Position numbers and translations under genes: made by a program. Below the pieces are notes generated by a model. The model saw only the letters and a list, made by a program, of their open reading frames with translations. It did no database searches and was not told the origin of the DNA. From positions 3,268,001 through 3,332,000 of the forward strand of contig NZ_UGOD01000001.1 of the NCBI RefSeq assembly GCF_900461525.1: a stretch of 64,000 bases of DNA. Reading direction: 5' to 3'. The DNA comes from Legionella busanensis. Lineage in GTDB: Bacteria; Pseudomonadota; Gammaproteobacteria; Legionellales; Legionellaceae. This document shows positions 34,319 to 46,266 of the stretch, one piece after another. Every line of letters starts with the position of its first letter. The first letter of the stretch is position 1.

Positions 34319-36595
34319 ATGAGCAATAAAAAAATAATTATTTTGGCTGATGAGAACTATTCTTTAGACGCCGATTTTACGCCGTCCCACTCAGTGGAAT
34401 ATATTCAAACATTAGATGATTTTTCTGCTAATGAATGTTTCTTATTGGCTCTTAAAGTTACTCAAACGACCTCATGGACTTTGCTTCAGCAGCTAAGAAA
34501 AATGCCAAATGCTCAACTTACTCCTCTCTTTTATATAGGCGAAATTGATGAACGGCTTTCATCTTTGTATGACGGCCCATTAGATGAAAAAGCCCTTGAA
34601 ATAGCCGACCGAATAAATGAGCTTATTACTCAAATTTCAGCCGAGTATACGCATGCTATAACTTATTTAGAGCAATTAATTTTAAGTTATTTATTCACTC
34701 GTAAAGACTATTTATTAACAGGTTTTATTGACTATCATGTGCCCTCGGGCATTGAGTACCCTTTAGTACGTTTTTTAAATCCCAATAATGAAGAAAAAGA
34801 TAGTTGGGCCTTTTTAGAAACAATGGCTGATGATGGCTTGTTACAACCTCAGTTAATAATTGGCGAAGTTCAATTATGTCCAACTTGCCAATCACCAGCC
34901 CTTTCCGGTGCGGAACTTATCCGTTGTACTGTGTGTAAGAGCAGCATATTAAAAGTGTCTCTTGATCCAAATAACAACAAATATTGTCCCTACTGCCAAA
35001 CCAAATTTGAATCTCAAGCGGCAGCCAGTGAATCATTTGAATTAAAAAATGAGCTTCCCTTTTACAGGCCTTCTTTCGCAGAAAAAACAATCACCTGTTT
35101 AGATTGCAAGAGACAATTATCGCAAACAGAATTACTAACGAAGAAATGTTTTACTTACGTAATTACAAATGAGGGTAAAAAGTTTGTTAAAGGAATTTCT
35201 TTTAAAAGAACATACCTTATAAGTGACAAAGCGCCTATTCAATCTGTAACAGATACTAATAAAGAGCTCACTACTGTATACTCTGTCCAAGCCCTGCCCA
35301 CTCGGGGTTGTTTTTCCGTAATACTTGATTTAACATCGAATTGGCAAGATAAATTGATTGCTCTGCGCAAGCTAAGCTACTATCAACTAACTCCTCTTTT
35401 TTATTTGGGCGAATTTATAACCTCACCAGAATTAATGCCACTCTTTGATGGCCCTTTTGATAATAATTCCATTCTTATTGCAAATGATATTAATGAACGT
35501 ATTCAACGTTTGTATTTTAATGAAAATAATCAATTTATTGGCCAATATGAATGGTTTATATTAAGTTATTTATTCACGCGTCCTAAATTACGTTTATTAC
35601 CTCAGTTAAATCATCAAGTAACACAAGCTTTTACTTATCCAGTACTTGATTTATTTGGGCAACCGCAAAAGGAAGATACGTGGGAATATTTACAAGACCT
35701 AGTCACAAGCGGATTTTTAAAACAAGGGGCCGCACATAGTGAAATACAAGCTTGCCCGAGCTGCCATGCAGGTCTTTTAAATTTTACAAGTAATTGTCCA
35801 AACTGCCATTCTGTCGATATTCAAGAACAACAATTTATTCATTGCTTTACTTGTGGCCATATTGGCCCTATTTCTGAGTTTATGTTACGCGAACAATTAA
35901 GATGTAGCCGCTGTCATACCAAATTAAGACACATTGGCATTGATTATGATAAACCCTTGGAAGACAAATTATGCTTAAATTGCAAGCATTCTTTTTTTGA
36001 ATATGAAGTTAATGTAACTTGCCTTGTTTGTAAAAAGCAATCTATGCCACAAGATTTACTAACTAGAAAATTATATGAGTACAATCTTGATCGCTATGGT
36101 ATTAATATTATCACTGGAGTTAGACAGAATTTATTTAAAGAATTGCCTCAAATTTTTAAATTTTTAGAATTCAATGCTTTTATGGCTATTGTTAAATGGA
36201 ATATAAAAATGGCTAAACGATTTAATAACCTTTCTTTTAGTTTACTAGCTATTAATATTTTAAATACGGATGATTTAATGCTTGAACTTGGTTTATTAAA
36301 AATGGAAAAGCTTTTACGTGAATTTTTTGAGGGATTAAGAACAGTATTTCGCGAAATCGATCTTTGTACTAAAAATGAAAATCAGCTTATATTTTTTTTA
36401 CCGATGACTGATGAGCATGCCAGTTCATTTATAATAAAAAAAATAAGAGATTTTACTGAAAAAAATTGGCGCAGACAGGAAGCAAAAATTGATATTAGCT
36501 TAAGCTATGTTTCATCGCACGAAATCATTAAATTAAATTTAAATGAAAACTCATTATTGGCCGAATTACATGGGTGGAAAACCTATGAACAGTGA
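34319..36595 (+). CDS. Multi-zinc-ribbon protein with tandem TackOD1-like modules and a degenerate GGDEF domain
   Basis: 758 residues. An N-terminal receiver-like part is followed by two copies of one module: QLTPLFY (66-72 and 356-362), ILSYLFTR (121-128 and 414-421), a D-x-W-x-(F/Y)-L helix, then zinc ribbons. CxxC pairs lie at 187, 203, 223, 260 and at 479, 493, 509, 529, 552, 568, ten in all. The helix-plus-ribbon module resembles what is called the TackOD1 domain. The last 140 residues look like a GGDEF fold whose signature is replaced by NENQL at 686-690, so it should not make c-di-GMP. The next gene overlaps its end by 11 bases. Likely a cytosolic sensor or assembly regulator for the glycosyltransferase that follows; the ligand is unknown. 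Confidence 0.75.
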   Translation: MSNKKIIILADENYSLDADFTPSHSVEYIQTLDDFSANECFLLALKVTQTTSWTLLQQLRKMPNAQLTPLFYIGEIDERLSSLYDGPLDEKALEIADRINELITQISAEYTHAITYLEQLILSYLFTRKDYLLTGFIDYHVPSGIEYPLVRFLNPNNEEKDSWAFLETMADDGLLQPQLIIGEVQLCPTCQSPALSGAELIRCTVCKSSILKVSLDPNNNKYCPYCQTKFESQAAASESFELKNELPFYRPSFAEKTITCLDCKRQLSQTELLTKKCFTYVITNEGKKFVKGISFKRTYLISDKAPIQSVTDTNKELTTVYSVQALPTRGCFSVILDLTSNWQDKLIALRKLSYYQLTPLFYLGEFITSPELMPLFDGPFDNNSILIANDINERIQRLYFNENNQFIGQYEWFILSYLFTRPKLRLLPQLNHQVTQAFTYPVLDLFGQPQKEDTWEYLQDLVTSGFLKQGAAHSEIQACPSCHAGLLNFTSNCPNCHSVDIQEQQFIHCFTCGHIGPISEFMLREQLRCSRCHTKLRHIGIDYDKPLEDKLCLNCKHSFFEYEVNVTCLVCKKQSMPQDLLTRKLYEYNLDRYGINIITGVRQNLFKELPQIFKFLEFNAFMAIVKWNIKMAKRFNNLSFSLLAINILNTDDLMLELGLLKMEKLLREFFEGLRTVFREIDLCTKNENQLIFFLPMTDEHASSFIIKKIRDFTEKNWRRQEAKIDISLSYVSSHEIIKLNLNENSLLAELHGWKTYEQ

Positions 36596-37913
36596 TATTT
36601 TTTATGAAATAGCTTATCATTTAACGTCTATTTTTAAAAATAATCAAAATCTTAGCTTTGCCCTTTTATTCTTTCCCTATGTTATTTTTATGGAAATTCC
36701 CTATAGTATTATTGTTATTCTATCAAGCGTAAGAAGCTGGTTAAAAAAATATAGCTTATATGCCTATACAAATAGTTATCCCTTAGTGACCGTCATTATC
36801 ACCGCTTACAGTGAAAGCAAGGCTGAATTAAACATCACAATAAGATCGCTAATAGAACAAAATTATCCTGGCAAAATAGAAAGCATTATTATTTTCGATA
36901 GTTCAGGTACAAATAGAGCTAGTATTTTTTTTGCTGAAGAACTGGTAAAGGCTTATCAAGGTATTCGTAATCGTGAATTTAGGTTAGTAAAAAAATTAAC
37001 TCGTGGTGGACACGCTAATTCAATGAACCTCGGCTTAAGGCTTGCAAAAGGAGCGGTGTTAATTATGCTTGATGCCGATACATCAATTGATAATCAAACT
37101 ATTAGTAAAGCAGCTCGCCATTTTGCTGACCCCGATGTTGTAGCCGTTTCTGGCGCAATTCGCGTTCGAAATTTTAAAGATTCAATATTAACCAGATTAC
37201 AAGCTATAGAATATATGCTTGGAATTCAACTCGGGCGCTTTGGTTTAAGTGAAGTCAATGCTGTGAATAACATTTCAAGTGCATTTGGCGTCTTTAGAAC
37301 AAGTTTTTTAAAAGTGATGGGTGGTTGGTTAAATGGTACAGCAGAAGATTTAGATTTAACCTTGCGTATTCATGCGTATAGTGCACGTTATCCAAACTTA
37401 AAAATTGTGCATGAACCCTATGCCGTGGCTTGGACAGCCGCACCTACTTCCATGCGCAAGTTATTAAAACAACGTATGCGTTGGGATGGCGATTTGTATT
37501 ACATCTATGTACGTAGACACTGGCGAAAATTTAATTCTCAATTTTTAGGACGCACAAAAAATATTTTCATGATTTGGTACAGCCTATATTTCCAGCTGAC
37601 ATTACCCTTCGTTATTATGTTATACACACTTTGGCTACTCATTACCTATAACCTTGGCTTTTTAATCGCCATACATGTATTAATCTATATCTACTATCTC
37701 ATAGCAGATTATTTTTTATTTGCTTTATTTTTAATTCTTGTCTCAGAGCGGCCGAAAAGCGATGCTAAGATGTTAGGCTGGATATTAATTATGCCCATTT
37801 ATCTACAAATAATGAGACTTGTTTCTGCTTCCTTTATTATTAATGAAATGTTATTTAAATCACATCGGACTTCAACTATGGCACCATGGTATATAATTAA
37901 AAAAACAAAATAA
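36585..37913 (+). CDS. BcsA-like processive GT2 glycosyltransferase
   Basis: Inner-membrane polysaccharide synthase-like protein of 442 residues. A first membrane segment lies near residues 20-40. The GT2 domain starts PLVTVIITAYSES; the UDP/metal motif is LDADTS, the acceptor motif TAEDLDLTLRI, and the processive-synthase signature QRMRW follows. Three or four C-terminal membrane segments follow. There is no PilZ domain, so c-di-GMP control, if any, must come from a partner. The ATG at 36585 follows GGGTGGAAA and overlaps the preceding gene by 11 bases; an earlier ATG at 36543 is less likely. The product is probably an unidentified exopolysaccharide. Confidence 0.88.
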   Translation: MNSDIFYEIAYHLTSIFKNNQNLSFALLFFPYVIFMEIPYSIIVILSSVRSWLKKYSLYAYTNSYPLVTVIITAYSESKAELNITIRSLIEQNYPGKIESIIIFDSSGTNRASIFFAEELVKAYQGIRNREFRLVKKLTRGGHANSMNLGLRLAKGAVLIMLDADTSIDNQTISKAARHFADPDVVAVSGAIRVRNFKDSILTRLQAIEYMLGIQLGRFGLSEVNAVNNISSAFGVFRTSFLKVMGGWLNGTAEDLDLTLRIHAYSARYPNLKIVHEPYAVAWTAAPTSMRKLLKQRMRWDGDLYYIYVRRHWRKFNSQFLGRTKNIFMIWYSLYFQLTLPFVIMLYTLWLLITYNLGFLIAIHVLIYIYYLIADYFLFALFLILVSERPKSDAKMLGWILIMPIYLQIMRLVSASFIINEMLFKSHRTSTMAPWYIIKKTK

Positions 37914-37931
37914 ATAAACAGATTATATAAT

Positions 37932-38960
37932 ATGGGTATACTTTTAAGGATAGAAAATAAAAAACCCTTAATTCCTGCGCCACCGCCTGGCGCTCGTAAG
38001 TTAGCCAGATTGCGCTGGCTTTTGCTGGTTCTTCTTCTTTGTCTTCCTTTAGGCTACTTATCGGTTAGGTTAATTCAAGATTACATTTTTGTCCGATTTA
38101 GTGGCATTATTATTTATGACACTTTGTTAGTTAGAGCGCCTGATGAGGGTTATATTAAAAGCATGTCAGTTCATACTGGTGAGTCTGTTCGACCTGGCGA
38201 TTTAATATTAGAAATTGATTCTCCAAAATTAAACAATAAATTAATGAATTTAATATATGAAAAAGAAAGAATTAGTAAACTCATTATTAATGTAAAAAAA
38301 TTTAATCAAGATGAGTTAGTTAATTCCTTAAAGGTAGCCGAAAAGGATATGATTGATAGTCAAAAAACGTATGAAAAATTCAAGGAGTATTTTAAAGGCG
38401 GCAATTTAATTACGCTGCAATTAGAAGAAGCAAGAAAAAATTATACGGCAGCGCAGCAAAATTATGCCAGTATTAAACAAAAAATGTCAGAAATTGCGCT
38501 ACATCAAAATACTTCATTAGAAGTCAATTATAATCGCCGTTTAGCTGAAGTTGAGAGCGATATAAAAGTACTTAAAACCCACCTTAAAAACTTTACTGTC
38601 CGAGCGCCACAACAAGGAACAGTTATGAGTATAGAAACGCATGTAGGCGAATATGTCCCTATAGGAAAAGATCTATTAACCATTGTAACAAATGATAACT
38701 TACAGATTAAAGCTTATATAGAGCCTAAATATAGCGCAGTAGCTACCCATGGTAGTAAAGTTACTATTCAACTGCCCAATAATGATAAAATACCAGGAAT
38801 CATTATTAATGATCCCCGTTATGCGCAACAACTTCCTTCTTCTGAAACGAATCCACTTGCAACGCGGCAAAATAAATTAATTGCTATTATTGCACCTAGA
38901 AAGCCAATACCGAAAGAATATCAAGTCTATGGGATTCCTGTTCAAATAAACTTAGATTAA
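37932..38960 (+). CDS. HlyD-like membrane fusion/periplasmic adaptor protein
   Basis: A single N-terminal membrane anchor (about residues 27-48, LLLVLLLCLPLGYL) precedes a biotinyl-lipoyl-like domain split by a coiled coil (about 85-205): VRAPDEGYIKSMSVHTGESVRPGDLILEID before it and VRAPQQGTVMSIETHVGEYVPIGKDLLTIV after it. The barrel domain follows. It lies 18 bases after the glycosyltransferase gene, so it probably bridges the synthase to the periplasm, like Alg44 or other exopolysaccharide export partners. It ends the operon. Confidence 0.88.
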   Translation: MGILLRIENKKPLIPAPPPGARKLARLRWLLLVLLLCLPLGYLSVRLIQDYIFVRFSGIIIYDTLLVRAPDEGYIKSMSVHTGESVRPGDLILEIDSPKLNNKLMNLIYEKERISKLIINVKKFNQDELVNSLKVAEKDMIDSQKTYEKFKEYFKGGNLITLQLEEARKNYTAAQQNYASIKQKMSEIALHQNTSLEVNYNRRLAEVESDIKVLKTHLKNFTVRAPQQGTVMSIETHVGEYVPIGKDLLTIVTNDNLQIKAYIEPKYSAVATHGSKVTIQLPNNDKIPGIIINDPRYAQQLPSSETNPLATRQNKLIAIIAPRKPIPKEYQVYGIPVQINLD

Positions 38961-38988: not shown

Positions 38989-41900
38989 TTAACGATTCGA
39001 CATCTCAGTAATTTTTTCTATTGTCTTTTCACCACTAATTTCTAATTCACCATTAAAAAAGGCAAGTTGATGAGTATTTTTTATTTCCTGCTTCATCATT
39101 TTATTATAAATAAGCTTTTTTACGTCTTCATGGCCGAAAATATCAGCAATCTCATGCGGTAAAATACTAAATTCACCCTCTTCATCAGCTTCTCTTTTTT
39201 CTATAAAACTTTTGGCCCTTTCTTGCGCTTCTGTATCGCCATATTTTTCAACCATCTCGTTTATCTCTTCAATGGTTGCTTTATAAGGTTCAAATCTGCA
39301 ACCCTCAACAGCAAGTAAAGCGGAAGCTATTTTAACCTTACCCGTTACTGCCACTGCAATAAGGGGAGTTTGCCCTGTTTCTGTAGTTTGATTAACATCA
39401 GCTTTCTTCTCAAGCAAAGTAGCCACCATCTCTTCATCGCTCTGGCAAACTGCTACATAAAGCGGTGACTCACCATTCTCTGTAGAAACTTTATGAATAT
39501 TAGTGCGTTCATCGGCGATTAACATTTTAGCAGCCTCTTTGTAGCCCCATTCCACTGCAATATAAAGGGGAGTCTGGTTAAAGGAGTCAGCCTCATTTAA
39601 TTTAGCCTCTTTTTTACCTAGTAATATTTTAATGACAGCTACTCGATTATTTTTGACAGCATTATGTAATGGAAGCTCCCTACGATCATGAGCATTAGGT
39701 TGATTCAGGTCAGCATTGTTTTCTAATAAAGCATTAATAACGTCTGTATAGCCTCTGCTTGCTGCAATATGAAGCGGGGTATCACCCTGGCCATTGACTG
39801 CATTAACATTAGCGTCATTTTTAATTAAAGCGAGAGCAGCGTTGACTTTGCCCTTTCGCAATGCAAAATGAAGAGGCGTTTCAGACTTAGAATTGACTTT
39901 AGCATCTTTTTTAATTAATGCGAGCGCAACGTCTATTTGACTCATTTGTAATGCACAATTAAGCGGTGTTTTGCCATTAGAGTTAATTTGATTAACATCA
40001 ACACCATGTTCAATTAAAGCGAGGGCAATGTCAATTTTGCCATTTTGCAATGCAAAGTGAAGAGGCGTTTCATTCTTAGAATCGTCTAAATTAACTTTAG
40101 CACCTTTTTTAATTAACGCGACCGCAACTTCTGTCTGGCCTGTTAGTAATGCATAATGTAGTGGTGTTTCACCCTTGAAATTAACTAGATTAACATCAGC
40201 ACCATGTTCAATTAAAGCGAGAGCAGCTTCTTTACTGTCCTTTCGTAACGCTAAATTAAGTGGTGTTTCTCCACCTTTAATACATTGATCAACTTGAGCC
40301 CCTTTTGCTATTAACTTAGCTATTACATCTGGCTTATGACCTAAGACTGCCATATGAACAGCAGTACCGTACTTTGCATTAACATAGGAAATATTTGCGC
40401 CTGCTGCTAATAATGGTTCGATTAAAGCAACCTGACCATTAAAGGCTGCGGCTTGTAAAGGAGTCTCACCTTCTCTAAATTTGCCATCTTCTGTATTTAT
40501 CAAATCTAAGCGTTGTAATTTGGCTACAACCTCAATCTCTCCTCTCATCAGAGCTGAATGAAAATCATTACGCCTTACTTGCCTATAGCTTTTCATAAAA
40601 TTAAACGTATCTTTATCTGCAGCAAACGCTTTAAGGACATTTACTGTCCCTGCTAATGGCAAATCCCATTCATTGGATCGATAATAAAGAATGGCCATAA
40701 AGACATCTTGACGCTCTTTATTTTCCATTAATTGGCGCCAAGAGCTTATTTGTTTTGTATAAGCTACTAGTGCCTCTATGAGCGGCTCCGGTAATGTTTT
40801 TCCATCAATTTTTTTACTATTTAAATACTTTACTAAGCTTTTAGCAGGTAAATTTTGTGCAATTCGTTCCTCTTCACTTAAGCTCTGATAATCCTTAAGC
40901 GCCTCAAATTCAAAATTTAGTAGTTTATCAATGGCCCATAATTGGCCTTGCATAATATATTCTAAAATTAAGTCGAGCCGTTCCTCAAGGTCAAGAGAAG
41001 CTAATCTTTCTTCCATAGCTTGAGAACAAATTTCTTTTTTAACCGGTGGTTTAGATGGTTGGCTTTTAGCATTTTTCTGTGTAGCTAGCTTCGGTGGTTG
41101 TTTTTTTACCTTACGAGTTTCTTTGGTAGGCTTTTCAATTTCAGTCTTAGAATCAGGTACCTTAAGATTAACCCGACTCAAATATGCTTCAAAAGAAGTT
41201 ACATCATTCTTGCTTTCGGTTACTTCTTGCTTGGTTGCAGATGAGTTTTTTAAATAACGATTTTCAATCTCACGAATCATTTCACTTATTTTAGGATCAG
41301 GGTTAGATTTCGCCCTTGCCTTTAAGTCCTCAACACGTTTACGCCAGTCTTCTTCTGAAGAGACTTTGACTTCCTCACTTGGTGTATAATCTGCAGTGGT
41401 TTTATTAGTTAGCTTTTTTAATGGGTTACAAATAGCTGCAATATCGCGGTGTTTTTTGCCATCAAGCGGTTGATAAATAGTGAGAGCGGTTTGAGCGCGC
41501 GTAATGGCCACAAAGAGTTCATTAAAAATGTTATTATGACAGATATTGCCAGTCTCGCACCCTTTAGGTATTTTTCCTTCTCTTAAAGCTTGTTCTAAAT
41601 CAATTTCTTTTGCCTGACTCATAGGCTTATTAGCCGCACTAAAGCTATCTTGCTCAAAGAATCGATATAATAATATTTCCTTAGCTTGTAACCCTTTCAT
41701 CTGCTTAGCAGTAAAAACTCGTTCCCGGCCAAATTTTTTGACAGCATCATCAAAATATTTAGGGCTAGTTATCACAACAAAATCAGCATTAGCCTGATTA
41801 TTTTTAGCAATTATCTCAAGTTTTTCGCTATCTTTTTCTTCGCTCTTAGGATCGTGGCCACCTAACCACTTCACATCCACACTCTTTTCTTTTTGTTGCT

Positions 41901-43314
41901 CAATACTTTTGATAAAGGGTAATTCATTATTATCAGTGACTGCTGTTCCACCAATAGCCTGATATTTAAGGTATAAGGCTGCATTAGCAAAACGTACAAT
42001 TGGCTCAGCGCAACGATAAGATGCATGCAGAGTAGTCGTTATATTGTCAGTAATTTCTTTTTTTTCTCCCCCTTCCCAAAAAAGAGTTTTCAAAAAGGGA
42101 ACGGTTGATTCGCTACCAGATAAGCGCTGATGGTCACCTACGCAAAGGACTAAATTCTTTCTAGATTTTTTTTCATCAATTTGTACTAATGATCTCAGTT
42201 GCTGCCTGGATAAATCTTGCGACTCATCTATCCCAATAAAATCATATTGCTCAGTAAGTTTAATTTCATTAAAGGATAAGTCGACTACTTTCTGTTGTTT
42301 ATTTAGTTTATTTAGGTTATCAATATGCGTGCGATAGGTCTGATATACCTGCCAAATTGCCTCACGAGCTTTGGGGTCAGGAAATAAAGATAAATTATCG
42401 TTAACTCCTTTATTGTATTTTTCAAGGCTAGGATAACCAGACATAGTATGCATCTCTTGATAAACAAGTGAAGCATTGACCTCCCCCGCTGGTAAAGGCC
42501 TCTGATCTTTTTTTAGATTGCTATTATAGTGTTTGGCATATTTCAGGTACCACTCAGTAAATTCTTTTTCGCCTAGGAATGTGACTGCTTCCTCAGGATG
42601 ATTGGCTCTATAAATGTCCTCTGGCGTTTGAAATTTAATGCAATCAATCCATTCAGGCTTAATGCTGGCATCCTCTTGACACATCTGCTTCCATTCTTTT
42701 TTCATTTGCTCGACCAAATATTGCGATTTCGCTAGTATTAAAATATTTGGCAGTTCGCCCTCTTCTTTCTGTGCTACCCAATGGGCCATATTATGTTTAA
42801 TTAATGCTAAAAGCGTACTTGTTTTACCTGAGCCGGGTGCGCCATTGATAATTCTGGGTAAAGAAGCCTTCTTTAATGATTCCTGCTCATCATCTAAGAA
42901 AATGTACTGTTGATTAGTGTATTCTATTTGTGTTGTTTCTTTGATTAATATCCCTGATTTTTCTTCCTTACCTGAACCCATAGCAAAATAGGCTTGCCTT
43001 ACCGCTTCTTTTTCTGCGTCGCTTAAACCTACTGCACGGCCGCCTTTTTTAAGATCCTTATATTCATGCCGAGTAAGTATTTTTGTTACAATCCAAACCT
43101 GTTCTCCTAATTTTGTTTTAATTGGACAGAGTATAATTCTTCTTTTTCGGTTATCGCGGATACTATAGAGAGGTTGATCGCCTTCAGTTTGTAATTTTTC
43201 TAATTTAAGCGAAGGATGTGATGGATTATCACTAAAGGTGGTAAGTGCTTTTTCATAAGTCTCAAAATCACTACTAAGCTCTTTCATTACTTGAGAACGA
43301 ATAAAGACTTTCAT
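38989..43314 (-). CDS. RelE/ParE-like domain, UvrD-like SF1 helicase and ankyrin repeats in one protein
   Basis: 1441 residues with three parts. Residues about 1-92 resemble a RelE/ParE-type toxin fold (DFETYEKALTTFSDNPSHPSL, YSIRDNRKRRIIL, VWIVTKILTRHEY). Residues about 130-620 form an SF1 helicase: Q motif LDDEQ, Walker A GAPGSGKT 158-165, DESQ 363-366, GDHQ 393-396, SYRC near 432 and VAITRA 602-607. A charged linker follows, and then from about residue 960 to 1370 about 12 ankyrin repeats (repeated TPLHxA, ALALIxxGAxVN). No signal peptide is present. The ribosome binding site is weak. Its ankyrin tail and size suggest a translocated effector; a stand-alone defence or RNA-acting protein is also possible. 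Confidence 0.85.
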   Translation of the reverse strand: MKVFIRSQVMKELSSDFETYEKALTTFSDNPSHPSLKLEKLQTEGDQPLYSIRDNRKRRIILCPIKTKLGEQVWIVTKILTRHEYKDLKKGGRAVGLSDAEKEAVRQAYFAMGSGKEEKSGILIKETTQIEYTNQQYIFLDDEQESLKKASLPRIINGAPGSGKTSTLLALIKHNMAHWVAQKEEGELPNILILAKSQYLVEQMKKEWKQMCQEDASIKPEWIDCIKFQTPEDIYRANHPEEAVTFLGEKEFTEWYLKYAKHYNSNLKKDQRPLPAGEVNASLVYQEMHTMSGYPSLEKYNKGVNDNLSLFPDPKAREAIWQVYQTYRTHIDNLNKLNKQQKVVDLSFNEIKLTEQYDFIGIDESQDLSRQQLRSLVQIDEKKSRKNLVLCVGDHQRLSGSESTVPFLKTLFWEGGEKKEITDNITTTLHASYRCAEPIVRFANAALYLKYQAIGGTAVTDNNELPFIKSIEQQKEKSVDVKWLGGHDPKSEEKDSEKLEIIAKNNQANADFVVITSPKYFDDAVKKFGRERVFTAKQMKGLQAKEILLYRFFEQDSFSAANKPMSQAKEIDLEQALREGKIPKGCETGNICHNNIFNELFVAITRAQTALTIYQPLDGKKHRDIAAICNPLKKLTNKTTADYTPSEEVKVSSEEDWRKRVEDLKARAKSNPDPKISEMIREIENRYLKNSSATKQEVTESKNDVTSFEAYLSRVNLKVPDSKTEIEKPTKETRKVKKQPPKLATQKNAKSQPSKPPVKKEICSQAMEERLASLDLEERLDLILEYIMQGQLWAIDKLLNFEFEALKDYQSLSEEERIAQNLPAKSLVKYLNSKKIDGKTLPEPLIEALVAYTKQISSWRQLMENKERQDVFMAILYYRSNEWDLPLAGTVNVLKAFAADKDTFNFMKSYRQVRRNDFHSALMRGEIEVVAKLQRLDLINTEDGKFREGETPLQAAAFNGQVALIEPLLAAGANISYVNAKYGTAVHMAVLGHKPDVIAKLIAKGAQVDQCIKGGETPLNLALRKDSKEAALALIEHGADVNLVNFKGETPLHYALLTGQTEVAVALIKKGAKVNLDDSKNETPLHFALQNGKIDIALALIEHGVDVNQINSNGKTPLNCALQMSQIDVALALIKKDAKVNSKSETPLHFALRKGKVNAALALIKNDANVNAVNGQGDTPLHIAASRGYTDVINALLENNADLNQPNAHDRRELPLHNAVKNNRVAVIKILLGKKEAKLNEADSFNQTPLYIAVEWGYKEAAKMLIADERTNIHKVSTENGESPLYVAVCQSDEEMVATLLEKKADVNQTTETGQTPLIAVAVTGKVKIASALLAVEGCRFEPYKATIEEINEMVEKYGDTEAQERAKSFIEKREADEEGEFSILPHEIADIFGHEDVKKLIYNKMMKQEIKNTHQLAFFNGELEISGEKTIEKITEMSNR

Positions 43315-43457: not shown

Positions 43458-44402
43458 CTATTTATTGTAACGAGTATATTCTTCGACAAATGGACTATTT
43501 AAATCACGCATATCGAGTACCGCGCCGTCAAAGGCCATAAAGTCCGTTTTCATATCGGGGATTTCATAAAAATAGATATCACTCGCATCCGTTGCTAAAG
43601 TATGCTGTCGCTTAATAGCTAATAATTCTGCTACAGCGTGTTGATGAGTTTTAGCAAATAATCGTTTAGCACGTAAATAGCGGCCCTTAAAGTGAGCATA
43701 GCCCCATAGTTCTAAGTCTAATTTATTGACAATACCTGCCAATTGAATAACTGAATGACCACGACCACGAATCGTTAACCAGTCACTCTTGATCCAATAT
43801 AAACTAATATTAGCATCACCTTTTAAATCAAGGTTGGAAAGATTGACAACGCCACTTAATTGAATTGTTGGATTTCCGGTAACTACTAATTGTAGATTAG
43901 ACGATTTAATACCATTAATAGACACGTAACTTGAGCCATGGACTTCAAGGCGGCCTAAATTAATATTACCTCCTAAAGTCGTTTTTCCTGGATTAGTGAT
44001 AAATAAATCTAATAATCCTGAATTTAAGTGCGGCCCGGTAATGGTACCAATACCTTGGTAAGAAAACGTATTAAGATGCCGAGTGCGAATTTCTATATTG
44101 ATAGGACCATGCTGAGGGAAAGCATCTAATAGAGATACAAATAATCGACTATTATCTACAGACATATTAATTTGTACTAAATCACGCGGGTCACCCCGCA
44201 AAATCACTTTAGATTTAGCATAACCTGTATGCAAGCTAACATTCATTTTACCTTGCACAAAAACATCATTAAAAGCAGGTAATATTCTTGTCTGGGTGGT
44301 TTTACCGACAGGAATAACTGTTTTTGGAGCAGATATATGAGTTCGAGCGCACCCAACAAAAAATAATATTAGAAAAAATAATATTAATGAGCGCCTCAAC
44401 AT
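43458..44402 (-). CDS. Lipoprotein with GIN (DUF2807) beta-helix-like domain
   Basis: The N-terminus is a lipoprotein signal (LILFFLILFFVGCAR, acylated Cys at about 18). The rest is a repeating beta pattern (GRLEVHGSSYVSINGIKSSNLQLVVTGNPTIQLSG, LDLKGDANISLYWIKSDWLTIRG) like the putative auto-transporter adhesin head GIN domain. Such proteins are surface or periplasmic and mostly uncharacterised. It lies between the ankyrin-helicase gene and srnL, both co-directional, with a 62-base gap to srnL. Confidence 0.8.
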   Translation of the reverse strand: MLRRSLILFFLILFFVGCARTHISAPKTVIPVGKTTQTRILPAFNDVFVQGKMNVSLHTGYAKSKVILRGDPRDLVQINMSVDNSRLFVSLLDAFPQHGPINIEIRTRHLNTFSYQGIGTITGPHLNSGLLDLFITNPGKTTLGGNINLGRLEVHGSSYVSINGIKSSNLQLVVTGNPTIQLSGVVNLSNLDLKGDANISLYWIKSDWLTIRGRGHSVIQLAGIVNKLDLELWGYAHFKGRYLRAKRLFAKTHQHAVAELLAIKRQHTLATDASDIYFYEIPDMKTDFMAFDGAVLDMRDLNSPFVEEYTRYNK

Positions 44403-44464
44403 AAGTTATTTGTCCATTTAAATTTATTTCCCTACATTAGACGAACTTACCTCAGCACGCAAGG

Positions 44465-45484
44465 TTAATGCTTAAATCTTGCTATAAATTTCTTTAAATC
44501 AAATGGTTGAAAAGTTTTTTTAGAGAAATTAGAAATACTTACCATAGCCGGACAACCATCATACCGATTAAGACCTTTTGCTTTGAGCACCAATGAATTA
44601 AGTGGTTCGCTAAATGGAATTAAAGCAGGTAATTGAATGAAAATATCAACTAAGTAGCCATTTTTACAACCTAAATATACTTTATTCAATGCTTCTATAC
44701 CAAAGGATTGCTCAATAACTTCTTTCAATTGCGTTAATGGCACGCGTTGTCCTACATGATTATGTAGATAATCACCTAAAAAAGTCGCTTGTGCTTCTTG
44801 TGTTAAGCGTAAAGCCAAAGAAAAATAATCATCATTAGATAAAATTTGACAGGTACCATGCTTATACCATTCATGTCTTTCTAAACAGCTTCCTACTGCA
44901 AAGCTTGGCATCAGTAAACGTAATAAGCTCGCTACTTTTTCGTTAAAATCTAAGACTGGGTAATCGCAATGATTAGATCGCGGTTTTGTATTACAAAAAC
45001 CATAAGCTTGCCCACAAACATCTTGATTAGGCCATAAACCATGTAAAACTAAATGGCTAGCTTGATAACTATCTGAAGGTAGACGTAAACATTCAGGTTT
45101 TCCTGCTTCATAGCCATAAGTCTGACAGAAACCGGGTTGCCAACTTAGCGCCAATACATAGCTATCTGCCATCCCAGGTACTTGTTGACAATTTGCTTGA
45201 TTAATTTCAAATGAAGCATAGCCACAATCACTACTTACCCAACGCAAGGGGTATTGAGAATTTTCTGGAATTTCGATACGTAGCCAATCAGGATTATTTT
45301 CTCGATTAATTTCTTTAATTTGATAACGAGCATTAGGCTGTATAAATAAGCCATCGGGATTGGTTTTTTTATTTTTCGAGAGATAAGCTGGACACGTTTT
45401 TGCTGCTTCAAATTTACCTACGACAGGTACTGCTAGTGTGTTTAGTGAAAATAAAAATAAACAAAAGCCAATCCTGTATTTCAT
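44465..45484 (-). CDS. srnL: Secreted T2-family ribonuclease (SrnL-like)
   Basis: Extracellular RNase of 339 residues. A signal peptide covers about residues 1-18 (GFCLFLFSLNTLAVP). The two RNase T2 active-site segments are intact: LVLHGLWPN and LERHEWYKHGTC, with the catalytic His residues. Many Cys residues fit disulfides in a secreted protein. About 90 extra N-terminal residues precede the catalytic domain. Legionella pneumophila secretes a T2 ribonuclease of this type, SrnL, used in growth in amoebae; the match is by family and context. Confidence 0.88.
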   Translation of the reverse strand: MKYRIGFCLFLFSLNTLAVPVVGKFEAAKTCPAYLSKNKKTNPDGLFIQPNARYQIKEINRENNPDWLRIEIPENSQYPLRWVSSDCGYASFEINQANCQQVPGMADSYVLALSWQPGFCQTYGYEAGKPECLRLPSDSYQASHLVLHGLWPNQDVCGQAYGFCNTKPRSNHCDYPVLDFNEKVASLLRLLMPSFAVGSCLERHEWYKHGTCQILSNDDYFSLALRLTQEAQATFLGDYLHNHVGQRVPLTQLKEVIEQSFGIEALNKVYLGCKNGYLVDIFIQLPALIPFSEPLNSLVLKAKGLNRYDGCPAMVSISNFSKKTFQPFDLKKFIARFKH

Positions 45485-45633
45485 AGACGCGTCCCTAGCA
45501 ACGAGATTTTATTTATTATACTGTTTTATCAGCAGGATACGAACATTATTTTAAGTAATTTGTTGAAAATATATGGTGTAAGCCCTAACGTCTCACATTA
45601 AGAAAAAAATAGCAGCAAACTAGTTTTATTTTA

Positions 45634-45660
45634 TAAAAAAAAGTGCAACAAAGCACTTTC
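45634..45660 (-). terminator. Rho-independent terminator downstream of cspA
   Basis: On the minus strand a 7-bp stem (AAAGTGC, loop TTTGTT, GCACTTT) is followed by an unbroken T run. A textbook terminator about 90 bases after the cspA stop. Confidence 0.85.
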
Positions 45661-45697
45661 TTATTTAGAAAAGATATCAGTGACCAGCTTCATCTTT

Positions 45698-45730
45698 CCT
45701 ACCAATAACAGACAGGCAGCTATTGGTAGG
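45698..45730 (-). terminator. Second hairpin between cspA and its terminator
   Basis: Perfect 10-bp arms CCTACCAATA and TATTGGTAGG enclose a 13-base loop just past the cspA stop. It lacks a T run, so it may stabilise the mRNA end rather than terminate. Confidence 0.5.
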
Positions 45731-45747
45731 GGATGAAAAAAAGCAGA

Positions 45748-45963
45748 TTAGACAGCAGTTACTTCTTCTGCCTGTAGCCCTTTAGGACCTTTTGTAACAG
45801 TAAATTTTACTTTTTGGCCTTCGAGTAGGGTTTTACGACCAGCAGCACTCACAATTGAGCGAAAGTGAACGAAAACGTCATCTTGACCATTATCACGACT
45901 AATAAAGCCATAACCTTTATCATCATTAAACCACTTAACGTGGCCAGTTTCTATAGCAGACAT
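45748..45963 (-). CDS. Cold-shock domain protein (CspA family)
   Basis: A single-domain nucleic-acid chaperone of 71 residues. The RNP1-like KGYGFISRD and RNP2-like DVFVHF motifs are exact, and the length is typical. The ATG at 45963 is chosen because the family starts just before TGxVKWFN and GGAAAG precedes it; a longer frame opens nine codons earlier. The 300-bp gap upstream could hold a long 5' leader as in other csp genes. Confidence 0.93.
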
Positions 45964-46266
45964 GTATACTTTCCAATTTAAATTAAACACATACTTGATC
46001 CATTAAGCCAATAACAAAGCATCGTAGGAGTCTATTGCGCGATAAATATGCCACTTTGGAATACAAAGGAAGGATGTTATGCACTGGTAGTAACAATGTT
46101 TCATTTAGGATTGCTGGAATGCAAGTAATTTTATTATAACCTACAATCAATAAAATTGCATCATAACTGATGATATTTAATTAACATTGTAAGCATTTAT
46201 ATAGTGCTAAAGTGATTAATTTAGTAAATTAATGTCTTTTAATCCAGCAATTGAGAAGATTTATTT
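45964..46266. other. 303-bp divergent gap with likely cspA leader
   Basis: Divergent between cspA and the dipeptidase gene. Near cspA the sequence is less AT rich, as expected for a structured cold-shock leader, but no csp box could be confirmed by eye. Nothing else was identified. Confidence 0.4.

What the first reader, a model, noticed from the sequence alone, without database searches (positions are those of the whole stretch)
38989..43314. A single protein joins a RelE/ParE-like domain, an SF1 helicase and ankyrin repeats
Seen: an N-terminal segment (1-92) with the pattern of RelE-type toxins, a complete UvrD-like helicase with Walker A, DESQ and VAITRA motifs, and about 12 ankyrin repeats. 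Known: RelE-type folds cut or block mRNA or ribosomes, SF1 helicases translocate on single-stranded nucleic acid, ankyrin repeats bind proteins and are typical of Legionella effectors. Inference: a helicase-coupled RNA-targeting effector, or a defence protein, whose target is chosen by the ankyrin part. I do not recall a described protein with all three.
Basis: partly seen in the sequence, partly recalled or inferred. Interest (0 to 1): 0.88.

Follow-up and report, generated by a model that had tools for sequence, protein, structure and literature searches.

The report
Toxin-fold, helicase and ankyrin fusion protein
A Legionella gene encodes one long protein that joins a bacterial-toxin-like fold, a nucleic-acid motor and a long protein-binding tail; the combination is real and belongs to a wider bacterial family for which we found no description, so it is not unique to this genome.

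Summary
ORF 38989-43314 (-) is one intact 1441-residue gene with a RelE-superfamily-like domain (1-92), a UvrD-like SF1 helicase (about 131-640) and about 12 ankyrin repeats (949-1346). Pfam misses the first part in the window sequence, but a 24-member profile has YoeB toxins as its best PDB hits (E 0.003, modest), and the YoeB-like residues R59, H83 and Y85 occur in 24 of 24 rows (E39 in 14, D in 2).

The sense that nothing similar exists does not hold. The organism is a Legionella. The N-domain-plus-helicase model matches 61 of 112 Legionellaceae genomes; relatives lie on Methylosinus, Polymorphobacter and Piscirickettsia plasmids and in unnamed Pseudomonadota. Ankyrin models match behind the helicase in 18 of 20 compact or outside tails and 15 of 29 Legionellaceae long tails. 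No recurring antitoxin or partner gene was seen. My paper searches found no description.

Best reading: an antitoxin-less toxin-helicase of biological conflicts, a predicted RelE/YoeB-type RNase gated by a translocase and aimed by a fast-changing repeat tail. Whether Legionella uses it in its own cell or in its host is unresolved.

The parts
38989..43314 (-). whole gene, 1441 aa, ATG start at 43314, stop codon 38989-38991
   Evidence: upstream sequence read
43039..43314 (-). residues 1-92: RelE-superfamily (YoeB-like) domain
   Evidence: profile against PDB, hhalign with controls, Pfam scan of 24 relatives
43060..43068 (-). residues 83-85, H-E-Y, likely counterpart of the C-terminal H-Y of YoeB (residue roles recalled)
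   Evidence: H83 and Y85 in 24 of 24 rows of A3; in the 14 rows of A4, which include the Cetobacterium protein, H83 is invariant and Y85 is not
43138..43140 (-). R59, likely counterpart of YoeB R65 (numbering recalled)
   Evidence: 24 of 24 rows; aligned with an Arg of solved YoeB chains
43198..43200 (-). E39, likely counterpart of YoeB E46 (numbering recalled)
   Evidence: E in 16 of 16 rows of A1, 14 of 18 of A2, 14 of 24 of A3
41395..42924 (-). residues 131-640: UvrD/PcrA-like SF1 helicase
   Evidence: Pfam; PcrA best PDB match of the family profile, E 2e-13
42820..42843 (-). motif I (Walker A) GAPGSGKT, residues 158-165
42217..42228 (-). motif II DESQ, residues 363-366
41494..41511 (-). 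motif VI VAITRA, residues 602-607
40471..41394 (-). residues 641-948: linker and helical-looking region
   Evidence: residues 660-950 match 0 Pfam families at E up to 10
39277..40470 (-). residues 949-1346: about 12 ankyrin repeats
38992..39276 (-). residues 1347-1441: C-terminal tail with glutamate-rich end
   Evidence: 5 E in the last 20 residues

Best explanation
A single-gene toxin-helicase of biological conflicts. Shown: the gene is intact, the three modules lie in one ORF, the N-domain resembles RelE/YoeB toxins by profile and keeps basic and His/Tyr residues, and the tail changes repeat number between close relatives. Inferred: the N-domain is a ribosome-linked or free endoribonuclease. 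The SF1 motor loads on a nucleic acid (invading DNA or RNA, or translated mRNA) and brings or unlocks that domain. The ankyrin tail binds the protein that decides where or when it acts. No separate antitoxin is seen, so the rest of the chain would have to keep the toxin domain quiet. In the compact, often plasmid-borne relatives it probably acts in the bacterium itself; in the Legionella long forms a host-cell role is about as likely.
For: RelE-superfamily profile evidence with controls. Conserved residues. SF1 motifs. Against L. gresilensis only 301 of 398 ankyrin-part residues align, 12 repeats against 9. No neighbour cluster other than the family's own in more than 4 of 31 sources. Resolvase homologues within 4 kb at 4 of 23 outside or compact loci (two of the four near-identical) and a Tn3 transposase at 2 of them. 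Tandem copies and split copies and matches in 61 of 112 Legionellaceae genomes fit a fast-turning conflict gene.
Against: No activity was tested. E39 is K or R in 8 of 24 rows. The RelE-like part is not more conserved than the tail in amino acids: identity to L. gresilensis is 0.71, against 0.84 for the helicase, 0.73 for the helical part and 0.65 for the ankyrin part; its low dN/dS (0.21; ankyrin 0.45) rests on a high dS of 0.73 in one pair of genes and was not tested for significance. PADLOC hits are partial matches to helicase or ankyrin parts. Neighbours were not scanned with a defence library; of 10 scanned with Pfam one is GmrSD. No match in phage records or confirmed in viral contigs.
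Confidence: 0.4

Rival explanations
1. In Legionella it is a Dot/Icm-injected effector: the RelE-like domain acts on host RNA or ribosomes and the ankyrin tail binds a host protein.
For: DotI/IcmL encoded in the genome; ankyrin-rich tail; at least 3 E in the last 20 residues in 13 of 27 Legionellaceae members against 24 of 165 other ORFs; many Legionellaceae genomes carry it; Piscirickettsia, another carrier, has a Dot/Icm system too (recalled).
Against: 8 of 20 compact or outside relatives have the same glutamate-rich end; the family occurs in Methylosinus and Polymorphobacter; ankyrin effector models score far below their cut-offs.
Confidence: 0.4
2. It is a self-acting anti-phage or anti-plasmid defence protein in all members, including Legionella.
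For: Patchy distribution (17 of 274 class genomes match, of which two are Legionellaceae and two look like plain UvrD helicases to me), mobile-element neighbours at some loci, SF1 and RelE modules both common in conflict systems (established knowledge).
Against: No PADLOC model covers the whole protein; defence-island context was not shown.
Confidence: 0.33
3. The RelE fold is a dead adaptor (ribosome or nucleic-acid binding) of a repair or RNA-metabolism helicase.
For: E39 replaced by K or R in 8 of 24 rows; Y85 counterpart not kept in every member of A4; SF1 helicases often carry accessory binding folds (established knowledge).
Against: R59, H83 and Y85 in 24 of 24 rows of A3.
Confidence: 0.25
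4. The RelE resemblance is chance.
For: No RelE hit in Pfam for the window sequence itself; no clear match to the ParE set, and the pooled set fails its reversed control for the outside rows; a non-RelE chain follows closely in the PDB list at E 0.0051.
Against: YoeB as the first PDB hits; YoeB score far above reversed, shuffled and PemK controls; five RelE-superfamily Pfam models hit by members.
Confidence: 0.08

Closest known systems
YoeB / RelE-superfamily type II toxins
   Same: Profile match and the R, H, Y (and in the window protein E) residues
   Different: Fused to a helicase; no recurring antitoxin gene beside it
PcrA/UvrD SF1A helicases
   Same: Helicase motifs; best solved relative PcrA, E 2e-13
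   Different: Toxin-like N-domain and repeat tail added
Compact relatives annotated 'AAA family ATPase' or 'ankyrin repeat domain-containing protein' (WP_099832079.1 Methylosinus, WP_216711068.1 Polymorphobacter, WP_155068129.1 Piscirickettsia)
   Same: RelE-like, SF1 and short ankyrin part in one protein; the Piscirickettsia Ank_2 match is under Pfam's cut-off (22.2 against 27.3)
   Different: 899-978 aa; carry a C-terminal domain that 0 of 29 Legionellaceae long forms show
Legionella ankyrin effectors (NCBIfam models AnkY, AnkH, AnkG, AnkX)
   Same: Ankyrin repeats match
   Different: Scores far below the equivalog cut-offs, e.g. 133.9 against 600 for AnkY
Gabija GajB
   Same: UvrD-like helicase region
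   Different: Partial match only; no neighbour annotated as GajA in the stretches
TRANK1 (eukaryotic ankyrin/TPR/UvrD-like protein; recalled only)
   Same: SF1 core with ankyrin repeats, as recalled
   Different: Not compared here; only listed papers that mention it

Membership tests
RelE/YoeB toxin superfamily | sequence-profile similarity to the superfamily | tested here: met
   YoeB comparisons and single-member Pfam hits; not met against the PF05016 ParE set
RelE/YoeB toxin superfamily | catalytic-type residues (YoeB E46, R65, H83, Y84; recalled) | tested here: met
   E39, R59, H83, Y85 in the window protein; across A3 R, H, Y in 24 of 24 and E in 14 of 24
RelE/YoeB toxin superfamily | cognate antitoxin gene next to it | tested here: not met
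   no recurring neighbour gene; window neighbours look like a lipoprotein and an HlyD-like gene by eye
RelE/YoeB toxin superfamily | fold | not testable with these tools
   structure prediction switched off
RelE/YoeB toxin superfamily | RNase activity | not testable with these tools
   needs a bench assay
UvrD/PcrA SF1A helicases | SF1 motifs I, II, III, VI | tested here: met
UvrD/PcrA SF1A helicases | ATPase and 3'-5' movement | not testable with these tools
   needs a bench assay
Dot/Icm effectors | Dot/Icm system in the genome | tested here: met
   DotI/IcmL at E 2.3e-62; other components not searched
Dot/Icm effectors | C-terminal glutamate-rich signal | tested here: inconclusive
   window end has 5 E in 20; 8 of 20 compact or outside relatives have at least 3
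Dot/Icm effectors | translocation | not testable with these tools
   bench step referred
Named Legionella Ank effectors (NCBIfam equivalogs) | score over the curated cut-off | tested here: not met
Gabija GajB | full-length GajB match | tested here: not met
   partial helicase matches only
Gabija GajB | GajA partner gene | tested here: inconclusive
   no recurring neighbour and none annotated so; no GajA profile was run on neighbours

The most novel reading that the evidence does not exclude
A widespread, undescribed class of one-protein conflict systems: a YoeB-type RNase built into a translocating SF1 helicase, with no separate antitoxin, switched on by nucleic-acid engagement and by a protein sensed through ankyrin repeats. 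Legionella lengthened the sensor and multiplied the gene, possibly turning a bacterial defence protein into a toolkit aimed at host translation.
Probability: 0.25. Interest if true: 0.82.

Novelty: new variant of a known kind. Interest (0 to 1): 0.55.

Why it matters
RelE-type toxins are normally held by a separate antitoxin; here the toxin-like domain is part of a motor protein, so control would have to come from inside the chain. The same architecture in free-living bacteria and its multiplication in Legionellaceae offer a testable case of a bacterial conflict protein reshaped in an intracellular lineage.

Tried and rejected
A match to the PF05016 ParE set was not separable from its reversed control and is not claimed. 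Absence of anything similar: rejected. Phage or viral origin: no match at E 1e-5 in 50,697 phage records and none confirmed among 600 pattern-matched viral stretches. Glutamate-rich C-terminus as an effector signature: first seen as an enrichment (13 of 27 against 24 of 165), then weakened by the outside-relative control (8 of 20).

Literature: eight searches gave no description of the combination. Searches matched 'rele' at word starts and so also 'released', and held a term that the tool reads as 'parelike'; these three say little. I read passages of PMC3710099, PMC5512222 and PMC11696984; all other papers were seen as listings only.

Limits of counts: the phylum search (11 of 398) scored 3 candidates per genome and the class search (17 of 274) 4, so both are lower bounds; on the other side, G012 and G193 look like plain UvrD helicases to me, and G663 matches over the helicase part only. 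Several weak matches also cover the helicase part only. Dropped rows: one search left out 2 ParE places by hand and 1 with a stop (27 of 30 kept), 7 of 23 YoeB places (fragments or stops) and 4 of 30 PemK loci; of 54 tails, one search left out 4 pieces of broken genes and one near-duplicate and one tail cut by a contig end. The 29 tails include near-identical tandem copies.

Full report
The ORF at 38989-43314 on the minus strand is intact, 1441 residues from an ATG. Pfam reports a UvrD-type helicase at 144-395 and strong ankyrin matches. A repeat model built from 11 of the protein's own repeats places 12 at 949-1346. The helicase carries GAPGSGKT 158, DESQ 363, GDHQ 393, YRC 433, KGLQ 540 and VAITRA 602, and PcrA is the best solved relative of the family profile (E 2e-13).

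The N-terminal part needed more work. The window's residues 1-100 match no RelE model in Pfam at E up to 10. I aligned the N-domain of 24 chosen relatives, window included. This profile searched against all PDB sequences gives three YoeB chains first (E 0.0028, 0.0028, 0.0037), then an 87-residue chain titled antitoxin RelB (0.0041), then a 40 kDa insecticidal toxin (0.0051); a further YoeB chain is eighth of 11 hits at 0.14. HHalign between 35 family N-domains and 16 YoeB sequences gives probability 86.4 and score 34.8; controls are 10.3 (reversed YoeB), 12.7 (best of 10 column shuffles) and 7.8 (PemK set). Legionellaceae rows alone give probability 58.7, outside rows alone 88.4. With the 27 PF05016 sequences the score, 16.2, does not clear its reversed control, 13.95, by much, and for the outside rows it lies below it (17.2 against 20.2); the pooled ParE+YoeB set fails its reversed control for the outside rows (20.7 against 20.4). 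Scanned one by one, members hit ParE_like (6 of 24, best E 1.6e-5), HigB-like (3), YafO (1), YoeB (1) and Gp49 (1), plus 13 other models by one member each. R59, H83 and Y85 are invariant in these 24 rows; E39 is E in 14, D in 2, K in 7, R in 1. In the 14 rows of A4, which include the Cetobacterium protein left out of the 24, R59 and H83 are invariant and Y85 is not. In YoeB the active residues are, from memory, E46, R65, H83 and Y84. So the RelE call is supported at profile level, on the YoeB side of the superfamily; the fold itself is unproven because structure prediction was off.

The organism is a Legionella. The closest named relative is Legionella gresilensis (81% over 1-661); 17 of 20 loci from that scan are titled Legionella, 2 Tatlockia and 1 an unnamed proteobacterial MAG. 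Among 11 genomes of the window's genus, its own included, 10 match; among 112 Legionellaceae genomes 61 match at E 1e-20 or better, 48 of 91 in the high-quality ones. Genomes can hold several copies, for example three in tandem in one genome. The window's own genome holds a second copy that is split into ORFs of 488 and 717 residues.

The three-part order is not special to this gene. 126 plasmid records match residues 1-661, 10 of them over at least 80% of the query. Four were fetched: Polymorphobacter, Methylosinus, Cetobacterium and Piscirickettsia, 899-978 residues. Ank_2 passes Pfam's cut-off in the first two, is below it in Piscirickettsia and absent in Cetobacterium. The Shigella and E. 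coli records that make up most of the 126 were left alone; the rows listed for them begin at query residue 140, so I do not know whether they have the N-domain. Ank_2 follows the helicase in 18 of 20 compact or outside tails at E 0.01 and in 15 of 29 Legionellaceae tails, the window included, at E 0.001. Two of the 20 are compact forms from Legionellaceae (G713 and G688).

The ankyrin-rich label, which I gave to 8 rows, needs 3 changes, though starred branches do not rule out one origin. The compact forms share a C-terminal domain (19 of 20, in a model built from them) that no Legionellaceae long form shows (0 of 29). A linker motif after the helicase is found in 19 of the 29 long forms; the window's own match to it is weak (E 0.46).

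Between the window gene and L. gresilensis (one pair) identity is 0.71 in the RelE-like part, 0.84 in the helicase, 0.73 in the helical part, 0.65 in the ankyrin part and 0.67 at the C-terminus; dN/dS is 0.21, 0.21, 0.58, 0.45 and 0.67. The low ratio of the RelE-like part rests on a high dS (0.73). Only 301 of 398 ankyrin-part residues align, 12 repeats against 9. The helicase is conserved and the tail moves; the RelE-like part lies between.

Context: by eye the neighbours are a lipoprotein gene upstream and an HlyD-like gene downstream on the other strand. Clustering of neighbour ORFs from 30 loci and part of the window found the family itself in all 31 sources and no other cluster in more than 4; those others look like shared chromosomal flanks or mobile-element genes. 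In the genus the lipoprotein gene matches in 11 of 11 genomes and the HlyD-like gene in 7 of 11, but by the coordinates the family gene lies directly beside them only in the window's genome and G004. So the gene is accessory at this site. Among 23 outside or compact loci, many on short contigs, a resolvase homologue lies within 4 kb of the gene at four (L071, L074, L192, L209; L074 and L192 near-identical), a Tn3 transposase at two of them (L071, L209), and IS6-like ORFs at three (L072, L074, L192).

Mechanism. I commit, at 0.40, to an antitoxin-less toxin-helicase: a RelE/YoeB-type RNase domain brought or unlocked by an SF1 motor and aimed by the repeat tail. Shown are the anatomy, the conservation and the distribution; RNase action, gating and targets are inferred. 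On which side it acts in Legionella I cannot decide. DotI/IcmL is encoded. The last 20 residues hold at least 3 E in 13 of 27 Legionellaceae members against 24 of 165 other ORFs, but 8 of 20 compact or outside relatives do too. The defence reading is supported by mobility and patchiness but by no PADLOC model over the whole protein, and neighbours were not scanned with a defence library.

Literature searches did not turn up a description of RelE-like, SF1 and ankyrin in one protein; this covers only the held open-access library. Passages read: PMC3710099, PMC5512222 and PMC11696984. The last, a domain atlas of L. pneumophila effectors, reports ankyrin repeats in 24 models and has no occurrence of 'helicase' in its main text.

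Noticed in passing
L033 5449-8972 (own genome, C1 near 1321463): A second family copy in the window's genome is split into ORFs of 488 and 717 residues; described only.
   Followed up: partly
L048 5958-9667 and 11749-15440: Two tandem copies in one genome are both split in the same way, into about 280 and 940 residues with 38 bases between; duplication of a broken gene or a stable two-piece form are both possible.
   Followed up: no
L043 4331-18632: Three tandem family copies of 1225-1246 residues within 15 kb.
   Followed up: no
C-termini of the window protein, L034, L056, L057 and others: The pair FF lies 11 to 40 residues before the C-terminus in 10 of 29 Legionellaceae members against 10 of 165 other ORFs.
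   Followed up: partly
L056 (Legionella jamestowniensis) compared with window 43458-45990: A family member only about 27% identical sits near relatives of the same flanking genes as the window gene; old shared site or repeated insertion.
   Followed up: no
L199 3908-9658: A 1916-residue member from another bacterial family with 10 ankyrin repeats, seven of them at about 72-residue spacing, possibly a separate tail expansion.
   Followed up: partly
window 34319-38960: A plus-strand run of three genes converging on the finding: by eye a 758-residue zinc-ribbon protein with a GGDEF-like end, a glycosyltransferase-like gene and an HlyD-like gene; possible polysaccharide or signalling cluster.
   Followed up: no
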